31,508 nucleotides of DNA from a virus: positions 1 through 31,508 of IMG/VR virus record IMGVR_UViG_3300009103_001650; one strand, written 5' to 3'. Both the position numbers and the translations under genes were made by a program. How positions within the stretch are numbered: the stretch's first letter is position 1; every line of letters starts with the position of its first letter. Shown piece by piece: positions 3,867-31,508 of this stretch. A model generated the notes under the pieces. That model ran no database searches and was not told the DNA's origin. It saw only the letters and a list, made by a program, of their open reading frames with translations.

Positions 3867-3867
3867 A

Positions 3868-5211: not shown

Positions 5212-5212
5212 A

Positions 5213-5929: not shown

Positions 5930-5941
5930 CAAGACCTTAAA

Positions 5942-6883: not shown

Positions 6884-6887
6884 ATCA

Positions 6888-8650: not shown

Positions 8651-8654
8651 CATC

Positions 8655-10756: not shown

Positions 10757-10762
10757 TATATA

Positions 10763-15599: not shown

Positions 15600-16246
15600 A
15601 AATTATAGATAACTTAGCACGAAAACTATACCTTGGGGTTTCTAAGATTCCGGGGGCAGGAGTAGGCCTTTTTGCGGGCACAGAAATCATGAGTGGAACC
15701 CCCGTTTGCGAATACAAGGGGGAGATTTTCGACATAGAAGAAGAGAAACGAGAAGACGGTCTTAGTCCAAAGCTTGAAAGTGAAAAAAAATTAGGGGAAA
15801 AATATAGCTACACCCTGCAACTTGGTTTCGACAAACCCGCCGCACTGTACTCCATAGGCTGGGCATCTCCAGATAGAAAACAGAAAAAGCTCATAGACGC
15901 TCAGCCCTCGCTAACTGCGGAAACTATAGGTCTTGGAGGCTTTGTGAACGACGCCCTTGGCTGGCAAGGACGAATGAAGCCAGAGTACGCTGAAGAAAGA
16001 AAACAAAGAGAAGAAAACCTAAAATCAGTTGAAGGGTTAAAAGCCAACAAAGAGCTAGATATTAAAGCTGGATTTAATCTCGAATACTGGTCACACCCTA
16101 CAGAAGTTTTAATTTACTTAAATGCTATTAAGGACATAAAACCCGGCGAAGAGCTATTCGTAAACTATGGAGATGCTTATTGGAATCCGTTTATTAAGTT
16201 TCTACAAAAGCAAGCCGAGGCCGAATCTAAGAAAGAAAATGAGTGA
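15596..16246 (+). CDS. SET-domain protein, putative lysine methyltransferase
   Basis: SET-domain signatures run in order. LGVSKIPGAGVGLFAGTEI (13-31) is the I-GxG-L-F-A N-terminal motif, CEYKGEIF (38-45) the following strand, GGFVNDALG (114-122) the region of the NHSC motif, and IKPGEELFVNYGDAYW (181-196) the closing GEE-L-x-x-x-Y pseudoknot with the catalytic Tyr. Known members methylate lysine using SAM. Here the NHxC motif is changed to NDAL, so activity and target are uncertain. SET proteins are rare in phages as far as I know. It overlaps the sigma-like gene by ATGA and the next gene by eight bases, implying joint expression. Confidence 0.75.
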   Translation: MKIIDNLARKLYLGVSKIPGAGVGLFAGTEIMSGTPVCEYKGEIFDIEEEKREDGLSPKLESEKKLGEKYSYTLQLGFDKPAALYSIGWASPDRKQKKLIDAQPSLTAETIGLGGFVNDALGWQGRMKPEYAEERKQREENLKSVEGLKANKELDIKAGFNLEYWSHPTEVLIYLNAIKDIKPGEELFVNYGDAYWNPFIKFLQKQAEAESKKENE

Positions 16247-17315
16247 TTTTAAACTAACAGCAGAACAAGAAGAGATTCTTTTAAATGAGTGGAACTCCAG
16301 ACCGGATTCTCCACCAGCTTTATTAGAGCTTATAAGGTTAGCTTTTCCCGGTCAGGAGCTTGACGGAAGGACTAAAGAAGGCAAAGCCGTAAAAGCGTTC
16401 TTAGCGTCTAGAGACATAAAAGCTCGTGGAGCGCACGAGTACAAGGCTAAGAAAAAAATTGGACTCACTGAGGAGGGGGAAACTTTTATAAAGAATAACG
16501 TTGAATTCATGAGTTCTGTAGAGATAGCGAGGATCTTATTTGAAGACCCAAATCTAACGAACTTGAATCAGGAAGCTCGCACTGTCAGCGATTACATAAA
16601 AAGCTTGGAGGGCTCCCCTGTTTTCGAACAGCCGGACGAGGTTCCGGCGGAAGATTATAAGCCCCCGAAAACCTTTGATAAGACTTTGTTTAGGGTAAAT
16701 AAGTATACGAATAATTCTATAAACAAAAATAAAATTACAACAAAGATTAAAAAACAAATAGAGTCTTTAATTAATTATATAAATACTTATAGATTTTGTT
16801 ATCAAATTAACACTTATGTTACGCTAACAGATAGAGAATTATTTGAGTCAAGCTTCGTGAGATATACGAACGACAAGCCGGACTTAACACAGGAGGAGGT
16901 AGATCAATATATAGTGCTGTCTTCGGAAGTGGTCATTGCAGCAAGCATACAGCGCAGAAAAGAGCATCTAACCCAGTTGTTAGACGGTATAGTAGAAGAC
17001 TCAGACGGAAGAGCGTCTATGTCCCTTGTTGAGGCAATAGGAAAAACCGAAACGGAATATAATCAATCTGTCAATCGACAACAAAAACTATTAAACGATC
17101 TAAAGGAGAAAAGAAGTGATCGCCTCAAAAAACAAATTCAAGAAAACGCAAGCATATTGAACTTAGTTAAAGTTTGGAAAGAAGAAGAGAGTAGAACAAA
17201 ATTGATTAAACTCTCCGAAATGAGAAGGAAAAGCGTTAAAGAAGAGGCGGAGAATTTGTCTTCCATGGATGAAATAAAAGCGAGAATCCTAGGGATAGAC
17301 GAAAATGACATATGA
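16239..17315 (+). CDS. protein with two HTH-like repeats and coiled coil, candidate small terminase
   Basis: Not matched to a known family. The start is ATG 16239, just before the previous stop. Residues 6-60 and 75-125 look like two copies of one DNA-binding unit: each opens LTxExE, has a helix, then an R-x-x-F segment and closes with A-x-x-VKxF or R-x-V-x-x-Y-I. The middle is polar, and residues about 270-350 are highly charged and probably coiled coil. Two DNA-binding-like units, an oligomerising tail and a place shortly before the large terminase suggest a small terminase or transcription factor, but this is inference. Confidence 0.45.
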   Translation: MSDFKLTAEQEEILLNEWNSRPDSPPALLELIRLAFPGQELDGRTKEGKAVKAFLASRDIKARGAHEYKAKKKIGLTEEGETFIKNNVEFMSSVEIARILFEDPNLTNLNQEARTVSDYIKSLEGSPVFEQPDEVPAEDYKPPKTFDKTLFRVNKYTNNSINKNKITTKIKKQIESLINYINTYRFCYQINTYVTLTDRELFESSFVRYTNDKPDLTQEEVDQYIVLSSEVVIAASIQRRKEHLTQLLDGIVEDSDGRASMSLVEAIGKTETEYNQSVNRQQKLLNDLKEKRSDRLKKQIQENASILNLVKVWKEEESRTKLIKLSEMRRKSVKEEAENLSSMDEIKARILGIDENDI

Positions 17316-18271
17316 GCGAGAAGGAAGAAAACGGGGTAATTTGCAAAAGTTGCGAGAAAGCCTTTCAAACGGAAAGGCAACTGCACGCTCATATCAAAGT
17401 GCATAAACTAAGAGTAGTAGAGTATTACCAAAAGTATTTCCCGAGATACGATCTTTACGATGGAAAAATTATTAAATACAAAACAAAAGAGCAATACTTA
17501 TCTACAGACTTTAATAGTAGGACCAATTTACGACTTTGGTTAAAAGAGAAAGACGCGGAAGAGTCCAAAAATTACTGTAAAGGCCTTTTGCTAGAAAGGA
17601 AGGAAAAGAAAGGTTTAGTTTATACTCCTTCCCAAGTGGAACTAAGGACTATACTGTCTCCCCCGATCCAGTATCTTCACGATACATTCAAAAATTATTA
17701 CCCCTTCTGTGAAGATATAGGTTTTAAAAACAAATACCAATTCCCTGTTGAAATAACAGAAGGCAAGGAGTACGAAAAGCCTCAGTATTCTATTCATGTA
17801 GATACGAGGGAGCAGCTACCTTTAAAGTTTGATGATTATACAACTAGGTCCACCACCTTACCCGTGGGGGACTATACTTTTAGCGAACCAAAGCTGACAT
17901 GTAATTGCTATATAGAAAGAAAGTCTTTAGCTGATTTCATATCGACACTAAGCGTCAGAAATTTCGAAAGGTTTGAAAAGGAAATTATTAGAGCAAAGGA
18001 GATGGAAGCGAATTTAATTATACTGGTGGAAGATACATTGAGTCATGCGATGAACTTTAAGTACCTGCCTTATGTATCAAAAAAAATAAAAGTTACTCCT
18101 GAGTACATTTTTCATAATGTGAGACATTTGATTCAAAAATATCCCCATATACAATTCTTATTTGTTAAGGGAAGAAAAGAATCTAAAAGAGTAGTCAAAA
18201 AAATATTTTTTAGTGGCTGCCTTTACAAGAGTATAGACTTACAACTGGCCTATGATATAAAAATCTTATAA
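17312..18271 (+). CDS. C2H2 zinc finger fused to an ERCC4-type nuclease
   Basis: A C2H2 finger is visible at the N-terminus: Cys11, Cys14, His27, His31 (C-x2-C-x12-H-x3-H). The C-terminal half has the ERCC4/XPF nuclease core: VDTREQ (163-168), LPVGDY (183-188), IERK (201-204) with Asp208, i.e. the GDx(n)ERKx3D signature. These residues bind the metal for cleaving branched or flapped DNA in the known family. A conserved-looking linker of about 100 residues lies between. In phages, such an enzyme could trim recombination or packaging intermediates. It overlaps the previous gene by ATGA and the terminase follows after one small gene. Confidence 0.8.
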   Translation: MSEKEENGVICKSCEKAFQTERQLHAHIKVHKLRVVEYYQKYFPRYDLYDGKIIKYKTKEQYLSTDFNSRTNLRLWLKEKDAEESKNYCKGLLLERKEKKGLVYTPSQVELRTILSPPIQYLHDTFKNYYPFCEDIGFKNKYQFPVEITEGKEYEKPQYSIHVDTREQLPLKFDDYTTRSTTLPVGDYTFSEPKLTCNCYIERKSLADFISTLSVRNFERFEKEIIRAKEMEANLIILVEDTLSHAMNFKYLPYVSKKIKVTPEYIFHNVRHLIQKYPHIQFLFVKGRKESKRVVKKIFFSGCLYKSIDLQLAYDIKIL

Positions 18272-18725: not shown

Positions 18726-20555
18726 ATGTGGTACTGTCCAGATAAATATAAAAATAAAGACGAAGAAAGCGTTAATGACCAGCTGCTAAAGATGAAGGGA
18801 CACCTTTCTGACAACGAAGCCAAGCTTACATTAGCCAAATTCTTGAACGCTAATTTAGGTCTTACTACTGAATTAATTTCTGGGATCAAGTTAGCTCCGT
18901 TTCAGGAAATTACCCTCAAAGGAATGATGAATAGAAACTTCTCAATGTGTGTTTGGGGTCGTGGTTGCGGTAAAACGTTCATTGCTTCAGTGTTTTGTTT
19001 CCTTCAGTGCATATTTAATCCCGGCACAAAAATATTAGTAGCCGGTCCCACTTTTAGGACGGCTAGATTTATTTTCGAAAACTTGGAAAAGCTGGTTGAG
19101 TCTGAGGGGGCAGAGCTTTTAATGCAATGTTTCGGGGCGAAATCGAAGAGAAATGATCAGTTTCAATGGCAAATTAACGGGGGGACAATCACGGCCATTC
19201 CGCTTAACGGAGAAAAAATTCGTGGTTTCCGCGCTAACGTATTGCTGCTGGACGAGTACCTACTTCTTCCTGAAGATTTAATCAACACAGTACTTATGCC
19301 ATTCTTAGTAGCTCCACAGAACATGAAAGAGCGTATAGAAATCAGAGAGATGGAAGACAAGCTTATCAAAGCTGGAGACATGAAAGAAGATGAAAGAATG
19401 GTTTTTGAAAACGATAGCAAGATGATAGAGTTATCTTCAGCAAGCTACACGTTTGAGAATCTGTATAAGACCTACAAAGACTGGGTTAATCATGTTTACT
19501 CTGAAGAACAAAGCGACTCCTCTTATTTCATATCCCAATTAGGATACGAAGCGTTACCTGAGCATATGATTGACCACACTATAATCGAAGCAGCTCAAGA
19601 CGGAGGGTATTCGAATGCCTCATTCCAAAGGGAGTATTGCGCTCAGTTCACGGACGGAAGCGATAGCTATTTCAGCGCAATCAAAATGCACCAATGCACT
19701 GTTCCAGATGGGGAAGAACCAACCACACTTATAAAAGGTAAATCGAGCGGGAAATATATCGTAGGTATTGACCCGAACATGAGTGATAGTCCAAGCGCGG
19801 ATTATTTTGCGATCACAGTCATGGAAATAGATGAAGAAAAAGAAACCTCAACATTAGTCCACAATTACGCGGGACTAGGAAGTCTGAATAATCATGTCAG
19901 ATATCTAAAGTACGTACTGGAGAACTTCGATCCAGAATTAATATGTATTGATAATGCTGGCGCAGACATGTTCTTAGAAGCAGCAAATCACTCTAAACTA
20001 TTTTTAGATAATAAAATAAACTTAAAGCCTATCGAGTTTGACTCTAACAAAGAGGGGGTAGATTACCTGAAAGAAGTAAGAAACCTGAAATCATCTTATA
20101 ATAAAGAAAATAAACAAATAGTCTTTAATCAAGTGTTCTCAAGCGATTGGATAAGAAAGGCTAACGAGCTACTTCAAGCAAATATAGATTACAAAAAAAT
20201 ATGGTTCGCATCAAGAACTACAGCAAATGGCTCAGAATTCGATAAACAAAGCATGACTAAGGTTAACTTAAAAGACGTACGTGAAGAAAATTTGGGGGAT
20301 TTTATCGAAACCCAAGATAATTTAGTATATCAGGTAAAGAAACAATGCGCTCTCGTAGAGGTAAAAACGACTTCTAGAGGAACCCAGACATTCGACCTCC
20401 CACAGCATTTAAAGCGGAATACCAGCGCAAACAGAGCGAGAAAAGATAATTATACTGGTTTACTTTTGGCTAATTGGGGTGTAAAATGTTACTTTGATAT
20501 GAAAAACTATAAGATGGAAACACCTTCTGCGACCTTTGTTCCTAGAATGGTGTAA
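18726..20555 (+). CDS. terL: terminase large subunit
   Basis: DNA-packaging motor ATPase and headful nuclease. Walker A is WGRGCGKT (77-84), Walker B is VLLLDEY (172-178) with catalytic Glu177, and the C-motif region follows. The RNase H-like nuclease domain has Asp349 (VGIDPNMSDS), Asp409 (ICIDNAG) and Asp574 (RKDNYTG), the expected three acidic residues. At 609 aa it is of the T4 gp17-like size class. The product translocates DNA through the portal encoded next. No Shine-Dalgarno site is visible; the start is preceded by AT-rich AATAATAATAAA. Confidence 0.95.
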   Translation: MWYCPDKYKNKDEESVNDQLLKMKGHLSDNEAKLTLAKFLNANLGLTTELISGIKLAPFQEITLKGMMNRNFSMCVWGRGCGKTFIASVFCFLQCIFNPGTKILVAGPTFRTARFIFENLEKLVESEGAELLMQCFGAKSKRNDQFQWQINGGTITAIPLNGEKIRGFRANVLLLDEYLLLPEDLINTVLMPFLVAPQNMKERIEIREMEDKLIKAGDMKEDERMVFENDSKMIELSSASYTFENLYKTYKDWVNHVYSEEQSDSSYFISQLGYEALPEHMIDHTIIEAAQDGGYSNASFQREYCAQFTDGSDSYFSAIKMHQCTVPDGEEPTTLIKGKSSGKYIVGIDPNMSDSPSADYFAITVMEIDEEKETSTLVHNYAGLGSLNNHVRYLKYVLENFDPELICIDNAGADMFLEAANHSKLFLDNKINLKPIEFDSNKEGVDYLKEVRNLKSSYNKENKQIVFNQVFSSDWIRKANELLQANIDYKKIWFASRTTANGSEFDKQSMTKVNLKDVREENLGDFIETQDNLVYQVKKQCALVEVKTTSRGTQTFDLPQHLKRNTSANRARKDNYTGLLLANWGVKCYFDMKNYKMETPSATFVPRMV

Positions 20556-20601
20556 TGTAAAATAAGATTTTATTTAAAAAAAAACTCTAAAAAAGACCAA
20601 A

Positions 20602-22629
20602 ATGAGCGTTCCGAAAAAACAAACAAAAAAAGTGGGAAGACCCAAGAAGAAAGAGTCTGAAGATATAGTGCCGATTATGATCTCTGAAGCCTCCGAAACA
20701 CGCCAAGAAAGTAACGCTTCAGATAGGACTTCTTATCGAAGAAACGTTTCTAGCACAATAGAGAGGACCGATAAATACAGCAATATAGACAAAGGTTTAG
20801 TCCCTTTTAGAACTGTAGACAACAAAGGCGCAATGTCGGTGAGGGATGCCGTTGTGTTATGTCAAAAAGCTTATTACAATTTTTCTGTTTTCAGAAACGC
20901 TATAGACCTGATGACAGAATTTTCTTGTGCAAGCATTTACTTTCAGGGCGGCAGCAAGAAATCTAAGACGTTCTTCGAAGCATTGTTAAAGAAGGTAAAT
21001 ATAGTTGATTTGCAAGATAGATTCTTCAGGGAATACTTTAGGTCAGGTAATGTATTTTTATATAGGCTCGATGCGGCGATCAAGAAGGAAGACGTTAGGA
21101 AGCTCTCACAGACTTTCGGAAGTAAAAAAATTAAAATTCCATATAGATACGTGGTTCTGAACCCAGCGGACATTCAATTATCAGGCTCCCTGAGTTTCTC
21201 TACTGACGTTAAAAAATACCACAAAGTACTTACTGACTATGAGCTAGAGAGAGTTAGAGTAGCTAAAACAGATGAAGACAAAAAGATAAGAGAGTCGTTA
21301 CCTGAAGATGTTAAAAAATTATTAAACTCTGGGCAGGTATTGAATTCTATAAAAATTCCCCTAGAGTCTGAAAAAATTTCAGCAATCTTCTATAAGAAAA
21401 TGGACTATGAACCCTTTGCGGTTCCCATGGGGTATCCAGTACTCGAAGATATAAATCACAAAACAGAATTAAAGCGCATGGATATGGCTATCGCTAGAAC
21501 TATGCAGCAAGCAGTATTGTTAGTTACGACAGGAACTGATCCAGATAAAGGGGGAGTAAATCAAAAGAACTTGGTTGAATTACAAAAGCTTTTCGAGAAT
21601 CAATCTGTGGGGAGAGTCTTAATAGCAGACTATACTACTAAGGCTCAATTTGTAATCCCTCAAATAGGAGACCTTCTCGACCCTAAGAAATATGAAATTG
21701 TAAACTCAGATATTCAAGCGGGATTGAACAGTATGATTACCGGTGCGGGGGGAGGAACGTCTACCGCTACGGGTGATAAAGCTAGCAGCTTTTCAATGAA
21801 AGTGGAAATTTTCTTAGCAAGACTTAAGCAGGCGAGAGAAACTTTTCTCAACGATTTTTTGATCCCAGAAATAAAAAGGGTAGCGCAAGATGTGGGTTTA
21901 AAAAACTATCCAACCCCTTTCTTTGATGAGATAAGTCTGAGGGAAAGCACGAACTTCGCTAAGGTTTATAGTAGATTAGTAGAAATAGGTGTCCTAACCC
22001 CAGAAGAAGGAATTAAAGCTATTGAGACGGGTAGGTTACCCACTCCAGAAGAGTCTGTCGAATCACAAATGCAATATAAATCTAACAAGAATAAAGGTTT
22101 ATATATACCAATGATGGGTGGAGTAGACCCAACTGACACAGCCAAACAAAGGAGCCACGAACTGAAGTTAGTAGACAAAAAAAGTTCGTCACCTTCTTCA
22201 CCCAACCCATCGAATAAGAACAAGCAATCTAAGATCAAACAACCAACGGGAAGACCTCAAGAAACTGACTCCCCTAAAGAGAGTAACGTTGAATCGAAAT
22301 CATTCTTTAGCTTCAGTAGGGTTAAAGAAAATATTTTACTTTCTCAAACTTTAGAGAAAGAAGTTGAGGTCAATCTAAGGAAAATTCATAAAGTAAAAAG
22401 ATTAAATAAAAAGCAGAAGGCCGTCGCAGAAAGCATTACTAGTGTAATTATAACTAACGAACCAACAGAAAACTGGAAAAATTCGATAGAGGATTACTGC
22501 AAGAAGCCTGTCGATAAAAATCATGACATGGTAAAAGAAATTACCGACATAGCTATCGAACATCAGGTCAACATGTTTATGGCGGGGATACTTTATCATA
22601 GTAAATCGGAAGAGGAGAACGGAGAATAA
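20602..22629 (+). CDS. portal protein
   Basis: Placed and shaped as the portal: 675 aa, directly after the terminase. The basic N-terminus (KKQTKKVGRPKKK) is disordered. The clip/wing region has YRNxV-type features such as FRNAIDLMTEFSCASIYF (98-115), YFRSGNVFLYRLDA (144-157) and the PADIQLSG strand that is typical of portals. The C-terminal 200 residues are polar and charged, with a PSSPNPSN-like linker. It forms the dodecameric head vertex. No Shine-Dalgarno sequence precedes the ATG. The end holds GGAGAA for the next gene. Confidence 0.88.
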   Translation: MSVPKKQTKKVGRPKKKESEDIVPIMISEASETRQESNASDRTSYRRNVSSTIERTDKYSNIDKGLVPFRTVDNKGAMSVRDAVVLCQKAYYNFSVFRNAIDLMTEFSCASIYFQGGSKKSKTFFEALLKKVNIVDLQDRFFREYFRSGNVFLYRLDAAIKKEDVRKLSQTFGSKKIKIPYRYVVLNPADIQLSGSLSFSTDVKKYHKVLTDYELERVRVAKTDEDKKIRESLPEDVKKLLNSGQVLNSIKIPLESEKISAIFYKKMDYEPFAVPMGYPVLEDINHKTELKRMDMAIARTMQQAVLLVTTGTDPDKGGVNQKNLVELQKLFENQSVGRVLIADYTTKAQFVIPQIGDLLDPKKYEIVNSDIQAGLNSMITGAGGGTSTATGDKASSFSMKVEIFLARLKQARETFLNDFLIPEIKRVAQDVGLKNYPTPFFDEISLRESTNFAKVYSRLVEIGVLTPEEGIKAIETGRLPTPEESVESQMQYKSNKNKGLYIPMMGGVDPTDTAKQRSHELKLVDKKSSSPSSPNPSNKNKQSKIKQPTGRPQETDSPKESNVESKSFFSFSRVKENILLSQTLEKEVEVNLRKIHKVKRLNKKQKAVAESITSVIITNEPTENWKNSIEDYCKKPVDKNHDMVKEITDIAIEHQVNMFMAGILYHSKSEEENGE

Positions 22630-22631
22630 AA

Positions 22632-23801
22632 ATGAACAATTCAGAAGACAAAAACGAAGAAAATGATCAAATAAAGTCCCTTTACGGAGACTCAGACTTA
22701 TCGCTTCCTGATGACCTACTCGTCCCAGATCTAGAAGAATCCAATTCAGGTTCTGATTATGAAGCTCGCAATATAAAGGATGATGTAGATGTCTCTTTTA
22801 AGTTTTGTTTCTTGGGAGCTGGACAAGGGGGATCTAGATTAGCTGAAACATTTAACAAGCTTGGGTACAATAGGGTTGCTGCGATTAATACAGCTAAATC
22901 AGATTTAAATACTCTATCTTTAGAAAACAAATTATGCGTAGGCGAGGGTGGCGGAGCGGGAAAAGACCCCGCCGTAGCTGAAAACGTTCTTCGGGAAAAC
23001 AGGGAAGATGTTATCGATTTCATGAGATACTCTTTCGGTGAATCTTTTGATAGGATTTTTATTTGCGCTGGGGCTGGGGGAGGCACGGGATCAGGCATGG
23101 TAACGTCATTAGTCAACTTAGCTGAAGAAGTTCAAGAGCTGGTGAGAACCGAGGAGAAACAAGTCGGGGTAATCTTAACATTGCCAAAGAAATCAGAAGG
23201 AATGAAGGTTAATAAGAATGCGTCCAATGTTTTAAATAACGTATTTTCCTTGGTGGAGACCGGTAAGGTGTCTCCATTGATCTTACTGGATAACGATAAG
23301 GTTGCGCAACTTTATCCTAATATAGCTGTCTCTAAATTCTGGGGCGCAGCAAACAGTAGCTTAGCCGGTTTATTCCATCTATTTAATTTAACCTCAGCAA
23401 AAGACAGTAGTTATACCTCCTTCGATAAAAACGATTACAAAGGAATATTAAATTCTGGGATGATTTTATTTGGAGCTTCTCCAGTTAAGAACTGGAATGA
23501 CCCTGTGCAAATTTCACGTACCGTAAGAGAGAACCTTAAGAGTAACTTACTGTCTGGAGGTGTTGATATAAGTACTGGGAATACCGCTGGAGTGGTAATG
23601 ATAGGGAGCACGGAGATATTAGATAATCTTCCTCAAGGACACATTGATCAAGCCTTAGATCAATTAAATCGAATCTTAGGTAGAAATAGCGTTGTCCATG
23701 GTGGTGTCTACAGTGGGGATAAACCCATATTAAATATATTCAGTGTTATAGGTGGCTTGGGCAGACCCACGGACAAGATAAGATCTCTTTCATCAAATTG
23801 A
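22632..23801 (+). CDS. tubulin/FtsZ-superfamily GTPase
   Basis: The tubulin-FtsZ signature is clear. GAGQGGSR (62-69) is the first nucleotide loop, NTAKSDL (86-92) the next strand, GEGGGAGKDPAVAE (104-117) the T3-like loop, and GGGTGSG (149-155) the diagnostic T4 phosphate loop. FDKNDYKGILNSG (264-276) places two Asp (265, 268) three residues apart, as in the FtsZ T7 catalytic loop, so GTP hydrolysis looks possible. The first 52 residues are an acidic disordered extension, and the C-terminus ends soon after the core. It differs from FtsZ by lacking a conserved tail peptide. It sits between portal and head genes, not in a replication or partition module as for PhuZ or TubZ. Confidence 0.88.
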   Translation: MNNSEDKNEENDQIKSLYGDSDLSLPDDLLVPDLEESNSGSDYEARNIKDDVDVSFKFCFLGAGQGGSRLAETFNKLGYNRVAAINTAKSDLNTLSLENKLCVGEGGGAGKDPAVAENVLRENREDVIDFMRYSFGESFDRIFICAGAGGGTGSGMVTSLVNLAEEVQELVRTEEKQVGVILTLPKKSEGMKVNKNASNVLNNVFSLVETGKVSPLILLDNDKVAQLYPNIAVSKFWGAANSSLAGLFHLFNLTSAKDSSYTSFDKNDYKGILNSGMILFGASPVKNWNDPVQISRTVRENLKSNLLSGGVDISTGNTAGVVMIGSTEILDNLPQGHIDQALDQLNRILGRNSVVHGGVYSGDKPILNIFSVIGGLGRPTDKIRSLSSN

Positions 23802-23837
23802 CGTCAAAAAAATAACAGACAAAAACATTAATTAATT

Positions 23838-23880
23838 AAAAAAGGTGTAATACTTCACAGTATGCGCCTTTTTATTTTTT
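23838..23880 (+). terminator. rho-independent terminator overlapping the next start codon
   Basis: The stem has an inner ATACT/AGTAT (23850-23854 with 23859-23863) around a TCAC loop. After one bulged base it continues as AAAAAGGTGT against GCGCCTTTTT (10 bp including two G-T pairs), followed by a T-rich tract to 23880. The ATG of the lipoprotein gene, at 23862, lies in the 3' arm. The hairpin would end transcripts from the GTPase operon and also hold the start codon. Confidence 0.75.
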
Positions 23881-24362
23881 TACTTTGTTTTATGATGCTC
23901 GGTTGCGGGTTATTAAAGCAGAGTAGAGAGCCTCATTACTTCTCAGAGATGAGGCAAGAAGGAAAAGATCCCCTTCATATATTTAGCTGCGGACCAGAGG
24001 CTATACAAAAAGCCTTCAGAAAACTAAACGTTCATGTAGATCTAAAAGACATAAGTCATGCTATTCAGAGTAATCATAAATTTAATACTTGTATCAGAGA
24101 TGTTTTAGCGATATTCGCCAATGACGCAAGGAGGATAACTTTTCCAGAGGAGGTAATCGATGAATTAAAGGCGCGAGGGTATTCGGTTAAAAAAATTAAA
24201 AATTATTCAGAGCTCGATGCAGAGACTGATGTAGCCATCATCCTAATCAAGAAAAAGAACTCCCTCACCTACCACTGGATGTGCTTCCCTGTGGATAGAA
24301 ATATTTTATCTTTTTTTGGAGAGAATACCGTTTTAAAAGAAATATACCTTATAGTTAAATAA
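23862..24362 (+). CDS. lipoprotein with C39-like cysteine peptidase core
   Basis: The N-terminus MRLFIFLLCFMMLGC is a signal peptide with lipobox MLGC (cleavage before Cys15), so the mature protein is probably lipid-anchored in the cell envelope. The mature part has FSCGPEAIQKAF (41-52), placing Cys43 at the head of a helix, and YHWMCFPVD (137-145), placing His138 and Asp145. That order fits C39-like papain-fold peptidases, although the order of strands is only guessed. A phage lipoprotein may exclude other phages or cut envelope peptides, which is inference. The start codon is inside the terminator hairpin, and its U-tract encodes part of the hydrophobic signal. A second terminator closes the gene. 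Confidence 0.6.
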   Translation: MRLFIFLLCFMMLGCGLLKQSREPHYFSEMRQEGKDPLHIFSCGPEAIQKAFRKLNVHVDLKDISHAIQSNHKFNTCIRDVLAIFANDARRITFPEEVIDELKARGYSVKKIKNYSELDAETDVAIILIKKKNSLTYHWMCFPVDRNILSFFGENTVLKEIYLIVK

Positions 24363-24385
24363 AATTAACTAAATATTGATTTGAG

Positions 24386-24406
24386 AATCCCAAGCGTGGG
24401 ATTTTT
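24386..24406 (+). terminator. rho-independent terminator after the lipoprotein gene
   Basis: AATCCCA (24386-24392) and TGGGATT (24397-24403) form a perfect 7-bp stem with an AGCG loop, followed by a T-run to 24406. It lies 23 bases after the lipoprotein stop codon. Together with the hairpin before the gene, it isolates this gene as its own unit. Confidence 0.7.
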
Positions 24407-24411
24407 AGTGT

Positions 24412-24431
24412 AGTTCTTAGTGTATAGAACT
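24412..24431 (+). promoter_or_regulatory. small inverted repeat upstream of the 24454 gene
   Basis: AGTTCT (24412-24417) and AGAACT (24426-24431) form a perfect 6-bp stem around an 8-base loop. TTAGTGTA also occurs twice here, once just before and once overlapping the loop. It could be an operator or a small leader hairpin; there is no further support. Confidence 0.25.
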
Positions 24432-24453
24432 GCCTAAATTGAGCTATTTTGTA

Positions 24454-24963
24454 ATGAAAAATAAGGAGCAAGAAATACAAAAGGAGAATTCGTCTGAGAA
24501 GAGCGAAAAAAAACTTGAAGAGCAGAGAATTTCCTTCTCCGCTAATCTGATTTCTTGCCTAGAAGACAAAAAGAAAAGCTTCAATAAAAGAACCAAATCA
24601 AGCCTCAAGATTCAGCAGTTGAGAGACGTATATTTCAGGGGAGTTTCTTCCGCTGAAGAGGACCTGAATCTACATGGCCTTGCTAGAGTTAATATGTTCC
24701 TAAGAATGAGGGAGCAAAATAAGGCAACGACAACCCCTTCCAATTCTGACCCCGCAGAAAAAGCTACAAGCTTAGAGCTTGAAAGCGCAGAGAGCGCTAA
24801 AGAGAGTTCTCCCATAGATATTTCTGCATCATGGAGACCAGAGGAAGACGACGTAAAAGAAGCTAAAGCTGATATCGAAAAATTTGATTTAAACTTGGAT
24901 TTTAAAAGTTTAGATGAATTATACTTAGAGACTTACAAACCAATTCAACTTGAATGGGAATAA
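24454..24963 (+). CDS. hypothetical protein, 169 aa, charged
   Basis: Unrecognised. I start it at ATG 24454 (MKNKEQEIQK), not at the in-frame TTG 15 bases earlier. The protein is rich in Glu, Lys and Ser, with a probable helical N-terminal half (residues 20-75), a Ser/Glu/Ala-rich disordered linker and an acidic C-terminus. It lies between lipoprotein and protease genes, where head-assembly accessory proteins are usual. No Cys cluster or membrane segment. Confidence 0.6.
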   Translation: MKNKEQEIQKENSSEKSEKKLEEQRISFSANLISCLEDKKKSFNKRTKSSLKIQQLRDVYFRGVSSAEEDLNLHGLARVNMFLRMREQNKATTTPSNSDPAEKATSLELESAESAKESSPIDISASWRPEEDDVKEAKADIEKFDLNLDFKSLDELYLETYKPIQLEWE

Positions 24964-24967
24964 TATC

Positions 24968-25732
24968 ATGGACATTGATTTCACACAAAACATTATACAA
25001 ATGAAAGAACGCGATGTTCTTCACAAGCCATTTCCGTCCCAAGAGGGATATTCTCTCTTTGAAAAAACGGAAGAAGGCAAAATCGTTAGAATGACTTTTT
25101 CTAGCGAAGAGTCTGTAAAAGCATACTTAAATCATCTTGGATATGATTGGGGAAATGAAGGTAAAAACGAATTCAGAAATTTTGATTGCATCAAAAGACT
25201 GACCACAGTTTTGCCAGAACTTAAAGATGCAGAAGTCGTCGCTGCGGACCCTCAATGGGATGCTGACGCAAAACCAGATTTCCATCTCGGTCAGCCAATT
25301 CAGCCGAAAGAACACGACTTGCATAAGTCTACTAGATCAATTGAAGATCTACCTCATCTTGCTGTGGAGCTTAGAGAAGTAGATCACCCGCTTCACTGGG
25401 ACGAAAGTAATTACGACACGAAAGCAAGCGAATGCGAGACATGTAAAGAAAAAGTTAAAGGAGATTATTCTGAGCTTTACCATAAAGTTCAAGGCGGATA
25501 CGACGGGGACATCAAAGTAGGAGACAATGTTAAAAATATTAACCCTAAATGTACTCATTTCGAAAGCGAGGGGGTCGTAAAAAAACTTAATGACATTCCC
25601 GGCGACAAAGGAACGACTGTTGCTTATCAATGTACTAACGCTGGAAAAAACTGGAAAAAAGGGGATATTCTAGATAAAACTCCTGACCAATTAACAAAAG
25701 GAAACTGCTCTAGCGGGGTTTGCATATACTAA
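24968..25732 (+). CDS. hypothetical protein, 254 aa, with a C-terminal SH3-like domain
   Basis: Unrecognised overall. The ATG at 24968 follows the previous stop by four bases; an in-frame TTG further upstream is less likely. Residues about 185-245 have a repeated strand pattern, IKVGDNVKNINPKCTHFESE then GVVKKLN and VAYQCTNAGKNW-GDIL, suggesting a small beta-barrel. Cys residues come as CETC, KC, QC and NCSSGVC near the end. The middle has acidic and His-rich stretches. It may be a head or neck component by position only. Confidence 0.55.
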   Translation: MDIDFTQNIIQMKERDVLHKPFPSQEGYSLFEKTEEGKIVRMTFSSEESVKAYLNHLGYDWGNEGKNEFRNFDCIKRLTTVLPELKDAEVVAADPQWDADAKPDFHLGQPIQPKEHDLHKSTRSIEDLPHLAVELREVDHPLHWDESNYDTKASECETCKEKVKGDYSELYHKVQGGYDGDIKVGDNVKNINPKCTHFESEGVVKKLNDIPGDKGTTVAYQCTNAGKNWKKGDILDKTPDQLTKGNCSSGVCIY

Positions 25733-25740
25733 GGTGTAAT

Positions 25741-27252
25741 ATGAAAGAATTTGAATATAAAACTACTTTTAGTTCGGAAGTAAAAGCTGCGGTTTCAGAA
25801 GATAGAGATAAGTACTTATCCTTGGCAAGCTTGATTAACATAGGAGACTTTCTGCCAAACGTTGACGTAGAAGAAAATGTTGATCTTTTACCTGTGGCCT
25901 TCAACGCGTTTGTAGCCAACAGGGTAAATAAAAATGGCGATGTGATAGATACAAAAACCGCTATCGCTATTCACGAAAATTTCTTAAACAAGCCCATCAA
26001 CATAGAACACGATAGAGACCGAGTTATTGGAACAATTCTTACCGCTGGTTTTAGTGAGTTCGGAACAGATAAACCCCTGACACTTGAACAAGTTAAAGAC
26101 ACCAATGGTCCATTTAACGTTACTCTGGGAGGTGTTGTATGGAAGATAGTTAATGATGAAATCGCAAGATTTATAGAGGATTCAAGCGATCCTACTAGCG
26201 AAAATTACCTAAAAGTATCAGCAAGCTGGGAATTAGGGTTTTCAGATTTTAATATTATATTGCTCAAAAATGATGAGAAAAATATAGAAAATGGTGAAGT
26301 AATAACAGAAAGAGAAAAAATAGAAGAACTTCAAGACCATTTAAGAGCTTTCGGTGGCAAAGAGTATGTTGATGAGGAGACAAAGGCATACAGGCAGGTC
26401 ATTGGAAATGTAGTGCCCCTCGGCATAGGCCTCACGGAAACCCCTGCGGCAGACGTCCAAGGAGTATCTACAGAAATAACTAAAAAACACAAAATTGAAG
26501 AAGATAAATTGGTGAAAACCAATTCTGCTTCAAATAATATTTCACGAAAACCCATTAAAAATGTAATTTTAAAGGAGAATGTCATGAAAATCAAGTCAAT
26601 CAAAGATATTACAGACGAATCTTTACAAGAGATGTCTGCTTCTGTTGTTACCGACTTCATAGAAGACGAACTCAAGAAAGCTTCTGAAAACTTTTCGGAA
26701 GACAAGGCGGCTGTTGAAAAACAGCTTAAGGACTCCATTGAACAGAATGAGAACCTCAGTAACGAGCAAGAAGCTCTCAAAGAGAAACTTACGTCTGTAG
26801 AAAAGTCTTTAGCTGAACTTGAGAAACAAAAACAGGAACAGGAAGCTCATCAAAGATTTAATGAACGGATGTCAGCCTTAGACGAAGAGTATGTTTTAAC
26901 CGATGAAGATCGGGAAGTCATCGCTTCGGATATTAAAGACATGAACAGCGAAGACTTCGAATCTTATTCGAAAAAACTTACGGTTCTCTTGAAAGAGAAG
27001 AATCGCGAAGTTCTTGCGAAGAAGGATGAAGAGTTAGCAAAATTGAAAGCTGAAGAAGCTGAGAAAACTCAGAAAGAAGAGGTGAAAGCTTCTGTTGAAG
27101 AGACTGACAATACTACGGTCATCGAAGATGCCGTAGAGGAGGCTCAGGAAGAAGACTCGGAAGATATTCCGAACTCTACCACTGCAGAAGAAGGAACTCT
27201 TACCGAGAGATATCAAAAAGCTTTTACTCTTGATCAATTCGAACTTAAGTAA
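25741..27252 (+). CDS. prohead protease fused to scaffold
   Basis: The N-terminal part, residues 1-240, resembles prohead maturation proteases of the T4 gp21-like type. FLNKPINIEHDRDRVIGTIL (81-100) carries the His90 motif, and YLKVSASWELGFSDF (156-170) carries the candidate catalytic Ser. The remaining residues from about 282 are strongly charged and coiled-coil-like (EKQLKDSIEQNEN, EKSLAELEKQKQ), typical of scaffolds. The two parts are joined by a Ser/Asn-rich linker. The start is ATG 25741. Protease would cut the scaffold and its own link during head maturation. The scaffold part can probably also start internally (separate entry). Confidence 0.75.
   Translation: MKEFEYKTTFSSEVKAAVSEDRDKYLSLASLINIGDFLPNVDVEENVDLLPVAFNAFVANRVNKNGDVIDTKTAIAIHENFLNKPINIEHDRDRVIGTILTAGFSEFGTDKPLTLEQVKDTNGPFNVTLGGVVWKIVNDEIARFIEDSSDPTSENYLKVSASWELGFSDFNIILLKNDEKNIENGEVITEREKIEELQDHLRAFGGKEYVDEETKAYRQVIGNVVPLGIGLTETPAADVQGVSTEITKKHKIEEDKLVKTNSASNNISRKPIKNVILKENVMKIKSIKDITDESLQEMSASVVTDFIEDELKKASENFSEDKAAVEKQLKDSIEQNENLSNEQEALKEKLTSVEKSLAELEKQKQEQEAHQRFNERMSALDEEYVLTDEDREVIASDIKDMNSEDFESYSKKLTVLLKEKNREVLAKKDEELAKLKAEEAEKTQKEEVKASVEETDNTTVIEDAVEEAQEEDSEDIPNSTTAEEGTLTERYQKAFTLDQFELK
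26584..27252 (+). CDS. nested scaffold protein from an internal start
   Basis: Inside the protease-scaffold gene, in the same frame, AAAGGAG at 26571-26577 sits six bases before ATG 26584. It falls exactly at the linker between the protease and coiled-coil parts. Starting here gives a free 222 aa scaffold, as lambda Nu3 is made inside gene C. No other internal ATG in the gene that I saw has so good a ribosome site. Confidence 0.6.
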   Translation: MKIKSIKDITDESLQEMSASVVTDFIEDELKKASENFSEDKAAVEKQLKDSIEQNENLSNEQEALKEKLTSVEKSLAELEKQKQEQEAHQRFNERMSALDEEYVLTDEDREVIASDIKDMNSEDFESYSKKLTVLLKEKNREVLAKKDEELAKLKAEEAEKTQKEEVKASVEETDNTTVIEDAVEEAQEEDSEDIPNSTTAEEGTLTERYQKAFTLDQFELK

Positions 27253-27283: not shown

Positions 27284-27886
27284 ATGGCACAACTGAAACC
27301 ATTTAGAGATTACGATGAGAAGGATGTAATTAACTTATTCTCCTTACATACCACGGGGCTAGCAGCCGCAAACGATCTAAGTACATGGGCTAAAAGAGTT
27401 CCCGCCGGAACGATGGTGAAAATCCACACTGGCTGGACCACTGGTCAAAACTTAGTGATGCTTGAAGATGCTGGATCAGCCAGCGCGGGCCTCAAAAACG
27501 TAACAACACAACGCTACGGCGTAGCAGCCAAACTCTTTCCATCTGCGGATACTGAAAGACCCGTTGGCATGATGCTCCATCACGTCGCTTCTGTCGACGA
27601 GAACGGAGAACAACTGAAATTCAACCCGAGAAAAGCAGCTGAGTTAGAGGCTTGTATTGATGGACAAGCAGTACCTATCGTAAGAAAGGGACTCTTCTTG
27701 ATCAACGAAGACGCAGCAACTCTTGGATCACCCACAGTCGGTGGAGCATTATATGCTGTAGGAGATGGTCAAATCTCCGCCACTAGCGGTGGAAGCTCCA
27801 TTCAAATCGGAATTAGCTTGGGCACAGCTGTCACTGAAGTTGACACTACCAAGACTGTTCTTATGCTGTTGGACTTACAAAATTAA
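27284..27886 (+). CDS. probable head decoration protein
   Basis: A 200 aa protein rich in Gly, Ala, Val and Thr, with many short strands and no membrane segment. Position directly between scaffold and major capsid protein matches the place of decoration or stabilising proteins in tailed phages. I do not see a named family motif. GGA lies in AAAGGAATAAAACATT before the ATG. It begins MAQLKPFRDYDEKDVINLF. A small outer capsid or fibre base protein is the alternative. Confidence 0.6.
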   Translation: MAQLKPFRDYDEKDVINLFSLHTTGLAAANDLSTWAKRVPAGTMVKIHTGWTTGQNLVMLEDAGSASAGLKNVTTQRYGVAAKLFPSADTERPVGMMLHHVASVDENGEQLKFNPRKAAELEACIDGQAVPIVRKGLFLINEDAATLGSPTVGGALYAVGDGQISATSGGSSIQIGISLGTAVTEVDTTKTVLMLLDLQN

Positions 27887-27913: not shown

Positions 27914-29092
27914 ATGAAATTGAAATTAAAAGAAACACCAGAACAGGTAGAACTTATTAAGGCTATCGGTTCTAGAGACGCAAATGTCGCTCGCGAAGCT
28001 TCTGAAGCATTCGCAGCTTTTCTCGGCCCGGTAATTGAAAAAGTTCTCTTGACCGCAGGAACAGCAAGCTCCATTTACGTAGACTCTGCTTTCGACGAAG
28101 ACGATTCACCAAGTTATCCGCTTGATCTTTATCACGGAGAACATGAAGGACACGTTCAAGTTTGGAGTCAGCACATGGCTGGTGGTTTACCCACCTCGCA
28201 AGTAGAAGGCATGCAAGAGATCAAGATTGCCACGTACAGACTTGATTCCGCAGTTAGCTTCAACAAGCGCTATGCTCGTAGAGCAAGACTTGATGTAGTG
28301 AGCAAAGCCCTCGAAAGAATGGCCAATGAAGTTCTGATTAAGCAAGAAAGAAATGCTTGGGCCGTTATTCTAAAGGCTCTTGCTGACGCTGAGACAACCG
28401 TTACGCATGCTACTACAGCTGGCGGATCGGAAGCAATGAAACACGTTATTCGCGCAGCCGCAGCCGGCGACTTCGGTCTGGCTGACTTGAATAACCTCAT
28501 GACTCACTCGAAAAGACTCAACGAGTCGTTCTCTGGGATGACACCTGTTGCCCCATACTCGAATGGTATTACGGATCTATACGTAAGTCCTGAGATTAAG
28601 GGAATGATTCGTGGATTTGCTTACAACGCAATGTACACTGGTACTCCTAACCAAGCCCTTCCGGATGATATCCGTTCCGAGATTTATCGTAACGCTGGTA
28701 TGGCATCCATTTACGGTGTTAACATCGTAGAGTTGGTTGAGTTTGGTAAAGGAAGAAAATACAACACCCTGTTTAATGATCTGGCGTTCACCGGCGGAAC
28801 TGATAACTTGGAAGCGATCCAAACGGACGCTGATGGTGGCACAGCCGGCAACCAAGCTTGGGATGCCGATACTCACCAGATTGTTGTCGGAGTTGATAAC
28901 TCCCGTGGTGCATTCATCCGTCCTGTTTCCCGTGGTCACGACTACGGTAGCGGAAACGGAACTTTCACTGCGTTACCAGATGAGCAATTCAATGCATATG
29001 GTAGTAGAGTAGAGAAGACAGGCTTTTACGGATTCCTCGAAGAGGGACGTATCTGCATCGATGCTCGCGCTATCATGGGTCTGGTTGTTTAA
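27914..29092 (+). CDS. major capsid protein, HK97-fold candidate
   Basis: A 392 aa protein, with a good AAGGAGATTT before the ATG, following protease, scaffold and decoration genes as in standard head modules. The N-terminal helical part (residues 1-45) is charged. A long-helix segment rich in Arg and Ala (YARRARLDVVSKALERMANEV-type, about 115-140) and the strand pattern to the end fit the HK97 fold. There is no long N-terminal delta domain, which agrees with the separate scaffold. Its UUCG terminator follows at 29124, matching a highly expressed last gene of a unit. Confidence 0.82.
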   Translation: MKLKLKETPEQVELIKAIGSRDANVAREASEAFAAFLGPVIEKVLLTAGTASSIYVDSAFDEDDSPSYPLDLYHGEHEGHVQVWSQHMAGGLPTSQVEGMQEIKIATYRLDSAVSFNKRYARRARLDVVSKALERMANEVLIKQERNAWAVILKALADAETTVTHATTAGGSEAMKHVIRAAAAGDFGLADLNNLMTHSKRLNESFSGMTPVAPYSNGITDLYVSPEIKGMIRGFAYNAMYTGTPNQALPDDIRSEIYRNAGMASIYGVNIVELVEFGKGRKYNTLFNDLAFTGGTDNLEAIQTDADGGTAGNQAWDADTHQIVVGVDNSRGAFIRPVSRGHDYGSGNGTFTALPDEQFNAYGSRVEKTGFYGFLEEGRICIDARAIMGLVV

Positions 29093-29990: not shown

Positions 29991-31508
29991 ATGCCTGTAG
30001 TAGTAACAGATCTCATAGACGGCGATAATCTTAATGATCCCTCTAGTTCTGGGTCACAAGCTACTGTTACTGATCAAGATGGTAACGTAGTTTCACAAAG
30101 CTCCGCAGGCTCAAGTAGCGGTGTTGTAGGTGCACAAGGTAATCAAGGTTCCCAAGGTAATCAAGGTTACCTTGGCGCTCAAGGTTTTCAGGGGCAAGGC
30201 ACTCAAGGCGCTCAAGGTTTTCAGGGGCATCAGGGCTTTCAAGGAAAGCAGGGCTTTCAGGGCTTCGCGGGGGGCGATAGTCAAGAATTTAAATTTAATA
30301 GCTCTATCCTTCTTTCTGATCTCGGTAACGGTCAATTAGGATACGGTTTTTCTTTTAAAGGGGATTATGGGTCGACTTCTAACGATTATTACTGGGAATA
30401 CGATGTGGTAAAATACCAAGGTTTCGTTCACGTATCTAAAGCAAACAGCTCTCTTAATCCAGCTAATGTGAGCGGTTCGACTAACAATACTTGGACAGTG
30501 TCAGCTCATAACCTCAGCAATGGAAACGTCGTGAAAATTACTTCAATGCCTATCGGAGCTGGTCCAGAGCTAGAAACCCCTTATTGGGTAGGAAGCGTTA
30601 CTAGCAATACTTTCGTTTTGTATACGGACTCCTCATTGTCAACGGTATTAAATGTCACTAGCAATGTTGCAAGCGCGAATATTGTGATCGCTAACATGGG
30701 AAACCTTCCGGGGACTGGTGCTTGGCAGCTTTTTAATCAAGGTGAGATCCTTGTAGATAATCTAAATTTTTATTCTAACAATATAACGGCTTGGTTAGAT
30801 TCTTTGGACGATAACTCAACTAACCCGACCAGAGGGATAATAAGGATATTTAAGGCAGATGATTCAAATAAATATGCTGTATTCAAAATAACAGGAGCTA
30901 CTACCGATGGTGAGCTAACGAGTGTTACAGCAGCGACAAGCGATACTTGGACAAAGACGAGTCATGGCCTCTTAAATGGAGAGGCGGTAATACTAAGTGC
31001 GATGAGTTTTGGCGTGGGACCAACCATTGGGGCGACTTATTACGTTGGAAACATAACTTCTAATACGTTTGAATTATTCACGGATAGCGGGCTTTCTAGT
31101 AAAGTAGATGTTACCAGTAATGTTTTGGGGGCAACTCTAGAAACAGCTAAAGTACTCAGTATTGAATACGTTGATCATAATGGAGCTTTCTCTAATTCAG
31201 ATAATGTAATTTTAAGTTTCACATTAGCAGGAGAAAAAGGGAATCAAGGCGTACAGGGGAGCGCTGGTAGTGCGGGAGCTCAAGGAGCCGCGGGTTCATC
31301 TGGTAGTGATGGTAACGCAGGCGCAACAGGCGCTCAGGGTGTCGCGGGCGCTCAAGGTGCCGCAGGTGCAGCGGGTAGTACAGGCGCTCAAGGTGCCGCA
31401 GGTGCAGCGGGTAGCACAGGCGCTCAAGGTGCCGCAGGTGCAGCAGGCGCTCAAGGTGCCGCAGGTGCCGCAAATGCAGCGGGTAGCACAGGCGCTCAAG
31501 GTGCTGCG
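29991..31508 (+). CDS. collagen-like tail fibre, 3' end beyond the window
   Basis: An open frame of 506 codons with no stop before the right edge. Residues 44-95 are a Gly-x-Gln-rich collagen-like stretch (GAQGNQGSQGNQG at the start; several GFQG units). Two related beta domains follow: SGSTNNTWTVSAHNL to VTSN (about 161-227) and a second copy to about residue 377. A second collagen-like Gly-x-y stretch begins near residue 416 and continues to the edge. The gene begins one base after the BppU-like gene. Collagen-like trimers make stiff, extended phage fibres. Host receptor and C-terminal domain lie outside the window. Confidence 0.75.
   Translation, partial: MPVVVTDLIDGDNLNDPSSSGSQATVTDQDGNVVSQSSAGSSSGVVGAQGNQGSQGNQGYLGAQGFQGQGTQGAQGFQGHQGFQGKQGFQGFAGGDSQEFKFNSSILLSDLGNGQLGYGFSFKGDYGSTSNDYYWEYDVVKYQGFVHVSKANSSLNPANVSGSTNNTWTVSAHNLSNGNVVKITSMPIGAGPELETPYWVGSVTSNTFVLYTDSSLSTVLNVTSNVASANIVIANMGNLPGTGAWQLFNQGEILVDNLNFYSNNITAWLDSLDDNSTNPTRGIIRIFKADDSNKYAVFKITGATTDGELTSVTAATSDTWTKTSHGLLNGEAVILSAMSFGVGPTIGATYYVGNITSNTFELFTDSGLSSKVDVTSNVLGATLETAKVLSIEYVDHNGAFSNSDNVILSFTLAGEKGNQGVQGSAGSAGAQGAAGSSGSDGNAGATGAQGVAGAQGAAGAAGSTGAQGAAGAAGSTGAQGAAGAAGAQGAAGAANAAGSTGAQGAA
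30472..30670 (+). repeat. fibre beta-domain repeat, copy 1
   Basis: Codes for a segment running from SGSTNNTWT through VSAHNLSNGNVVKITSMPIG, then PYWVGSVTSNTFVLYTDS to NVTSN. It shares TWT, H-x-L-x-NG, S-M-x-x-G-x-GP, Y-x-VG-x-x-TSNTF-x-L-x-TDS and V-T-S-N with the segment at 30924-31120. Confidence 0.65.
30924..31120 (+). repeat. fibre beta-domain repeat, copy 2
   Basis: Second copy of the beta unit in the fibre, from VTAATSDTWTKTSHGLLNGEA to DVTSN. The copies agree in motif order and length but differ at many bases, so the duplication is not recent. Confidence 0.65.
31347..31508 (+). repeat. 36-base tandem repeats in the collagen-like part
   Basis: Units at 31347-31382 and 31383-31418 differ at one base. 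A shortened unit (31419-31445) and a longer unit (31446-31490) follow, and another begins at 31491. Each codes GAQGAAGAAGST. In the longer unit Asn (AAT) takes the place of a Gly, breaking the Gly-x-y register once. The array runs past the window edge. Confidence 0.9.

What the first reader, a model, noticed from the sequence alone, without database searches (positions are those of the whole stretch)
22632..23801. Tubulin/FtsZ-family GTPase between portal and capsid genes
The gene has the GGGTGSG phosphate loop, the first nucleotide loop and a T7-like DxxD segment, so the tubulin-FtsZ call is firm and GTPase activity is plausible. Its place inside the head-assembly module, directly after portal, differs from the phage tubulins I know: PhuZ in jumbo phages that build a nucleus-like compartment, and TubZ in plasmid-like phages. 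Expression with head genes suggests a role in positioning, building or trafficking capsids, or in acting on host division late in infection. The acidic 52-residue N-terminal extension is also unusual.
Basis: partly seen in the sequence, partly recalled or inferred. Interest (0 to 1): 0.87.

Follow-up and report, generated by a model that had tools for sequence, protein, structure and literature searches.

The report
Phage tubulin beside the portal gene
This uncultured phage, like many of its relatives, makes its own tubulin-like protein, a GTP-driven filament builder, from a gene right beside its DNA-packaging portal gene; it probably moves or positions phage parts inside the infected cell, and its shape differs from the phage tubulins studied so far.

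Summary
ORF 22632-23801 (+, 389 aa) is a real, strongly selected tubulin/FtsZ-superfamily GTPase: Pfam Tubulin E=1.4e-11, and a predicted fold (pLDDT 85.7) matching TubZ at Z=36, CetZ at 35 and FtsZ at about 30. All nucleotide loops and both T7 aspartates (D265, D268) are invariant in 43 homologues. It lies 2 bp after the portal gene. It belongs to a well-supported clade seen in more than 200 IMG/VR stretches, with no close relative among isolated phages.
Portal-tubulin adjacency holds in 82 of 82 testable main-clade loci, but is not universal. One subclade carries the gene about 30 kb away, some relatives have lost it, and outgroup phages have the head module without it. Position therefore suggests late co-expression, not a head-assembly role.
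It lacks TubZ hallmarks (upstream TubR gene, C-terminal tail) and the PhuZ tail. Instead the family has a 34-66-residue N-terminal arm with a conserved D-x-S-L-P-D-x-x-x-P motif and only 7-25 residues after the last strand.
Most likely it is a GTP-dependent late filament that positions proheads or phage DNA, docking through the N-arm (inferred). It is a new variant of a known kind.

The parts
22632..23801 (+). tubulin/FtsZ-superfamily GTPase gene, 389 aa, with stop
22632..22781 (+). disordered acidic N-terminal arm (residues 1-50) with conserved motif DLSLPDDLLVP (residues 22-32)
   Evidence: pLDDT under 50 for residues 1-25 and 32-44; D22, P26, P32 and D50 nearly invariant or invariant in 43 homologues; longer than in all FtsZ/TubZ/PhuZ references
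22815..22838 (+). T1 nucleotide loop GAGQGGSR (residues 62-69)
22887..22907 (+). T2 loop NTAKSDL (residues 86-92)
23076..23096 (+). T4 phosphate loop GGGTGSG (residues 149-155)
23421..23435 (+). T7 synergy loop FDKND (residues 264-268); D265 and D268 invariant
20602..22629 (+). portal protein gene, immediately upstream (2 bp gap)
   Evidence: AF2 model matches portals of HFTV1, T4, phiCD508, T7 and others by Foldseek
18726..20555 (+). terminase large subunit gene
   Evidence: Pfam Terminase_6N E=1.5e-8; phrog_2 E=5.7e-23
23862..24362 (+). downstream ORF, putative lipoprotein, often the next conserved gene in the clade
   Evidence: synteny; no family hit
24439..24963 (+). conserved ORF before the protease gene (prohead-core candidate)
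   Evidence: synteny; function by position only
25720..27252 (+). candidate prohead protease/scaffold gene
   Evidence: position before cement and capsid, conserved in syntenic loci including outgroups; no Pfam hit
27284..27886 (+). candidate capsid cement protein gene
   Evidence: weak Pfam Phage_cement E=0.006; synteny
27914..29092 (+). candidate major capsid protein gene
   Evidence: weak phrog_1650 'major head protein' E=0.041; synteny

Best explanation
The gene encodes a GTP-binding tubulin-superfamily protein that polymerises head to tail, with the T7 aspartates of one subunit completing the active site of the next. It is made late in infection, with the packaging and head genes, and its filaments position phage cargo (proheads, the packaging complex or phage DNA) inside the infected cell, as PhuZ does. 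The cargo or anchor is probably recognised by the flexible N-terminal arm through its conserved D-x-S-L-P-D-x-x-x-P peptide, because the C-terminal tail that does this in FtsZ, TubZ and PhuZ is missing. Shown here: fold, intact loops, purifying selection, distinct clade, arm architecture, gene order. Inferred from the superfamily: GTP hydrolysis and polymerisation (about 0.85). Inferred from operon position and PhuZ analogy: late expression (about 0.8) and cargo positioning (about 0.5). Arm docking is a hypothesis (about 0.35).
For: Fold: TubZ 4ei7 Z 36.2, rmsd 2.3 over 327 residues; CetZ2 Z 35.3; FtsZ about 30. Loops and T7 residues D265/D268 invariant in 43 homologues, the T7 pair also in phage G gp138. 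Strong purifying selection. Portal upstream in 82 of 82 main-clade loci with room, about 52 of them within 10 bp; tubulin distances track portal distances (Pearson 0.78), as portal tracks terminase (0.79). No terminator in the 2-bp gap. Loss in some lineages parallels the dispensability of PhuZ (PMC11724907). Capsids are known to travel on treadmilling PhuZ filaments (PMC7950403). Family arm architecture and motif conservation 0.71 against 0.33 for the linker behind it.
Against: No experiment exists. The 49-52%-identical sister clade and L224 carry the gene outside the head module, so coupling to head genes is not obligatory. Relatives assemble heads without it. The interval after the portal is a variable region, so neighbours may be unrelated in function. 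No partner protein was identified.
Confidence: 0.5

Rival explanations
1. Host-directed: the protein enters or caps host FtsZ filaments, or occupies a divisome partner, and blocks or redirects host cell division late in infection.
For: FtsZ-superfamily fold with intact interfaces; independence from head genes in the sister clade; small host-division inhibitors acting on FtsZ are common in phages (own knowledge).
Against: Known phage FtsZ inhibitors are small peptides or proteins, not full GTPases (own knowledge). Only about 20-23% identity to FtsZ and TIGR00065 63.8 bits against a 295-bit cut-off. Full conservation of the catalytic residues points to its own polymer.
Confidence: 0.17
2. A head-assembly or virion factor: a GTPase that acts on the portal or prohead without forming long filaments, such as a timing switch or portal chaperone.
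For: Adjacency to the portal throughout the main clade and co-divergence with it.
Against: The same head module works without it in relatives and outgroups; family members occur away from head genes.
Confidence: 0.15
3. A TubZ-type (type III) partition system that keeps the phage genome as a plasmid prophage.
For: Closest by sequence and structure score to plasmid TubZ, weak sister grouping 84/68.
Against: No TubR-like gene upstream, whereas each plasmid TubZ locus read and phage G has a 90-119-aa ORF there; no iteron array in 20400-24500; no C-terminal tail; sits in the late structural module.
Confidence: 0.07

Closest known systems
TubZ / RepX of Bacillus-type plasmids and pseudolysogenic phage c-st (type III partition)
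   Same: Fold (Z 36), loop set, DxxD/E T7 segment, closest sequence match
   Different: TubZ has TubR upstream, centromere repeats, and 73-86 residues after the last strand including H11 and a tail needed for filament dynamics (PMC5322520); here none of these, and a long N-arm instead
PhuZ of nucleus-forming jumbo phages (Chimalliviridae)
   Same: Phage-encoded tubulin, dispensable within its phage lineage, likely late cargo positioning (PMC7950403, PMC11724907)
   Different: Very distant in sequence (phrog_4733 E=0.028); 42-45 residues after the last strand and almost no N-extension; PhuZ is not beside an annotated portal gene in phiKZ
FtsZ
   Same: Superfamily fold and GTP site; flexible arm with a conserved peptide
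   Different: In FtsZ the arm is C-terminal; TIGR00065 score 63.8 against 295
CetZ of archaea
   Same: Second-best fold match (Z 35.3)
   Different: 22-24% identity; cell-shape role in archaea (own knowledge)
Bacillus phage G gp138 ('putative FtsZ-like cell division protein')
   Same: Only clear isolated-phage relative found, 26% identity to a family member, same loops
   Different: Has a winged-helix-like 98-aa ORF (gp137) upstream, no N-arm, 65-residue C-extension
A0A6J5RW92 'FtsZ Cell division GTPase' [uncultured Caudovirales phage]
   Same: Top hit in the viral structure library, E=1.1e-32
   Different: 28% identity, 452 aa; a database annotation, no study of it was found

Membership tests
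Tubulin/FtsZ GTPase superfamily | Two-domain tubulin fold | tested here: met
   AF2 pLDDT 85.7, pTM 0.84; 740 of 740 chains aligned at Z>=8, best 36.2
Tubulin/FtsZ GTPase superfamily | GGGTGSG-type signature, T1-T6 nucleotide loops and T7 acidic residues | tested here: met
   Conserved in 43 homologues
Tubulin/FtsZ GTPase superfamily | GTP hydrolysis coupled to polymerisation | not testable with these tools
   needs purified protein
TubZ (type III partition) | Small DNA-binding TubR gene directly upstream | tested here: not met
   Upstream gene is the portal in the window and in 82 of 82 main-clade loci; control: a 90-119-aa ORF lies upstream at each plasmid TubZ locus read and in phage G
TubZ (type III partition) | Centromere-like repeat array (tubC) nearby | tested here: not met
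   No multi-copy repeat family in 20400-24500; the rest of the genome is not held
TubZ (type III partition) | Long C-terminal helix and flexible tail | tested here: not met
   14 residues after G375 against 73-86 in seven TubZ
TubZ (type III partition) | Falls in the TubZ clade | tested here: inconclusive
   Sister to TubZ at 84/68; grouping with FtsZ, PhuZ or phage G is not rejected (AU p 0.30-0.41)
PhuZ | Falls in the PhuZ clade | tested here: inconclusive
   PhuZ forms its own 100/100 clade without it, but AU p=0.305; phrog_4733 only E=0.028
PhuZ | C-terminal tail used in filament assembly | tested here: not met
   14 residues against 42-45 in PhuZ
PhuZ | Encoded with chimallin nuclear shell | tested here: inconclusive
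   No hit with phiKZ gp054 in five contigs, but no positive control and genomes incomplete
FtsZ | Passes the curated FtsZ model | tested here: not met
   TIGR00065 63.8 bits, cut-off 295.2
FtsZ | C-terminal linker and conserved partner-binding peptide | tested here: not met
   C-extension 7-25 residues in the family against 49-194 in complete FtsZ references

The most novel reading that the evidence does not exclude
A separate class of phage cytoskeleton: a tubulin whose adaptor arm has moved to the N terminus and which is co-expressed with the portal to drive or anchor proheads (or the packaging complex) in phages that need not build a nucleus, with the D-x-S-L-P-D-x-x-x-P peptide binding a portal, prohead or membrane partner.
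Probability: 0.25. Interest if true: 0.85.

Novelty: new variant of a known kind. Interest (0 to 1): 0.62.

Why it matters
In the papers read, capsid and DNA movement on phage tubulin is described only for nucleus-forming jumbo phages, and DNA partition by phage tubulin only for TubZ-type prophages. A large clade of uncultured phages with an intact tubulin in the late packaging operon, without TubR and with an inverted tail layout, would show that viral cytoskeletons are more widespread and were re-engineered more than once. It also gives a compact, testable protein (389 aa, a separable arm, a conserved motif) for asking how tubulins recruit cargo without a C-terminal tail. The natural set of related phages with and without the gene allows comparison of what it adds.

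Tried and rejected
P0001 by tblastn in 50,697 phage records: no match at E<=0.01; a sister-clade query reached only phage G well, the other matches being weak hits to unannotated contigs. Genome contigs (GTDB) with the tubulin alignment: none. TATAAATA late-promoter search: 7 matches against 3.7 expected, none near the gene, not used. Promoter scan of the head region: 14 against 19.5 expected, uninformative. Chimallin search: empty but without positive control, so no conclusion. FtsZ hits in 'phage' records with E. coli FtsZ look like host contamination or cellular FtsZ on small fragments. The idea that the gene is universal in these phages was rejected: 32 portal relatives with at least 4 kb downstream lack it there, and 15 of 16 contigs searched whole lack it, with one positive control found. 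The idea that it is a head-module core gene of the wider lineage was rejected by outgroup loci among L216-L223. The exact sister group could not be fixed. Resemblance of the N-arm peptide to the DIP core of the FtsZ C-terminal peptide was considered and left untested. No paper on this clade was found in nine library searches; one cited survey of PhuZ-encoding phages (PMC12625630) was not held. The c-st phage and the anthrax and insecticidal toxin plasmids were deliberately not fetched as TubZ references; other Bacillales plasmids were used.

Full report
OBSERVATION. The ORF at 22632-23801 (+) is a complete 389-aa reading frame with an ATG start 2 bp after the stop of the preceding gene. It matches Pfam Tubulin above the gathering score (E=1.4e-11), phrog_17961 (unknown function, 6e-10) and only marginally phrog_4733 'tubulin PhuZ' (0.028). 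By sequence the nearest solved structure is Bacillus TubZ/RepX 4ei7 (1.9e-17; 2.8e-21 with a family profile), ahead of FtsZ and CetZ.

FOLD. An AlphaFold2 model from 43 homologues has mean pLDDT 85.7 and pTM 0.84; residues 1-25 and 32-44 are below 50. VIA-align gives TubZ 4ei7 Z 36.2 (rmsd 2.3, 327 residues), CetZ2 35.3, c-st TubZ 31.5, FtsZ about 30-31. In a library of viral models the best match is an uncultured-phage protein labelled FtsZ (28% identity, E=1.1e-32); PhuZ models are far behind (TM about 0.5).

LOOPS. Across 43 homologues (50-78% identity to the window protein) the phosphate loop glycines, N86, E189, N196, D220-N221, N241, F264, D265 and D268 are invariant. Most also hold when phage G gp138 is added. 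Aligned with FtsZ and TubZ, D265 and D268 occupy the two T7 acidic positions (FtsZ NxDFAD; TubZ FDSSE). Against the nearest relatives, pN is 0.14-0.15 and pS 0.74-0.81, so constraint is strong. Catalysis and head-to-tail assembly are predicted from this; they were not measured.

FAMILY. IMG/VR scans found 239 relatives with an alignment query (best 80 fetched) and a sister group of 18 loci. No isolated phage in INPHARED matched the window protein; the only clear isolate relative of the family is Bacillus phage G gp138 (26%). A maximum-likelihood tree puts the family on one branch (100/100), apart from FtsZ (99/100) and PhuZ (100/100), next to plasmid TubZ with weak support (84/68). AU tests reject none of the alternative pairings (p 0.30-0.41), so 'a distinct clade' is shown and 'closest to TubZ' is only suggested.

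ARCHITECTURE. Counting residues before the first core strand and after the last, FtsZ, TubZ, PhuZ and phage G proteins have 3-32 before and 42-194 after (an incomplete Haloarcula fragment left out). Every member of this family sampled in the tree has 34-66 before and 7-25 after. The N-arm is low-complexity and acidic but carries a peptide, DLSLPDDLLVP in the window, usually D-[IL]-S-[LM]-P-D-I-x-[MI]-P. Its mean conservation is 0.71 against 0.47 before and 0.33 after it, with P32 invariant. The same peptide is kept in the sister clade (DMELPDIPMP) and in L224 (VDMPDIPLP). In TubZ the C-terminal tail shapes the filament and binds partners (PMC5322520), and PhuZ uses its C-terminal tail in assembly (PMC3678025). 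The simplest reading is that the partner-binding arm has moved to the other end; this is a hypothesis.

GENE NEIGHBOURHOOD. The upstream gene is the portal: its model, although of modest confidence, retrieves almost only portal or neck structures (HFTV1, phiCD508, T4, T7, G20C). In the main clade the portal lies upstream in all 82 loci that reach far enough, in 55 with nothing between and in about 52 within 10 bp; near-copies are included in these counts. Otherwise one to three inserted ORFs lie between, including a recurring 431-449-aa structural-looking protein. No terminator was called between portal and tubulin, and no repeat array was found. Tubulin pairwise distances track those of the portal (0.78) about as well as portal tracks terminase (0.79); its median distance lies between those of terminase and portal.

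LIMITS OF THE POSITION ARGUMENT. (a) The sister clade has the gene near GTP cyclohydrolase and recombination genes (annotated by eye), about 30 kb from terminase in two contigs. (b) In L196 it lies between terminase and portal. (c) Of 77 further portal relatives, 12 have it downstream, one elsewhere, and 32 with at least 4 kb of downstream sequence lack it. Searching 16 contigs whole (up to 133 kb) found it only in the known positive. On the portal tree this needs four changes, at least three of them forced by well-supported branches. (d) More distant relatives (36-39% portal identity, in MAG contigs) read terminase-portal-protease-cement-capsid with no tubulin gene. So the gene was probably gained in this lineage, then kept for long and lost a few times. 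It is useful but dispensable, as PhuZ is in Chimalliviridae (PMC11724907).

MECHANISM. Best supported: a late, GTP-dependent filament that positions phage cargo, analogous in use to PhuZ, whose treadmilling filaments carry capsids (PMC7950403). Rivals: action on host division, a non-filament head factor, and TubZ-type partition. The last is disfavoured because the TubR gene, repeats and C-terminal tail are absent, whereas phage G and the plasmid TubZ loci read all have a small ORF in the TubR position; in phage G and one plasmid it has weak similarity to winged-helix families.

STATUS. Phage tubulins are a known kind, and a distant homologue is already labelled FtsZ in databases, so this is not categorically new. 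No study of this clade was found. The combination of separate clade, inverted tail layout, missing TubR and packaging-operon location makes it a new variant worth testing.

Noticed in passing
window 15596-16246: SET-domain protein (Pfam SET E=1.7e-10) encoded in a phage, between a sigma-70-like gene and the packaging genes; present in several relatives.
   Followed up: partly
window 14901-15599: Sigma-70 region 2 protein (Pfam E=4.3e-7), conserved upstream of the head module; candidate late sigma factor of the phage.
   Followed up: partly
window 1802-13291: Large sugar/surface-polysaccharide gene block: nucleotidyl transferase, sugar dehydratase/epimerase, asparagine-synthase-like amidotransferase, RgpF-like and WbqC-like proteins.
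   Followed up: partly
window 17312-18271: ERCC4-type nuclease domain with an N-terminal C2H2-like finger, usually just upstream of terminase in relatives.
   Followed up: no
window 23862-24362: Putative lipoprotein (lipobox-like LLCFMMLGC) with a CGPEAI motif reminiscent of C39-like peptidases; conserved downstream of the tubulin gene but no family hit.
   Followed up: no
portal-to-protease interval, e.g. L159 8883-11742, L205 8901-12974, L005 3435-5735: Insertion-rich late region: tail-fibre/adhesin-like ORFs, a recurring 400-450-aa structural-looking protein, and a set of small membrane or lipoprotein ORFs (94, 149, 66, 138 aa) that may be lysis genes, in phages with and without the tubulin.
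   Followed up: partly
L088 5698-7125 and L121 7698-9122: Phage G and a 175-kb relative carry a TubR/TubZ-like pair (98-aa winged-helix-like ORF plus tubulin) among nucleotide-metabolism genes, suggesting a partition system in phage G.
   Followed up: partly
L225 1237-2448: More divergent tubulin (403 aa) with a long N-extension and almost no C-tail, beside a PIN-PhoH gene, on a contig binned with a Halobacteriovorax MAG; the arm architecture may be wider than this clade.
   Followed up: partly
window 29991-31508: Collagen-like repeat tail-fibre gene running off the window end (Pfam Collagen E=1e-19).
   Followed up: no
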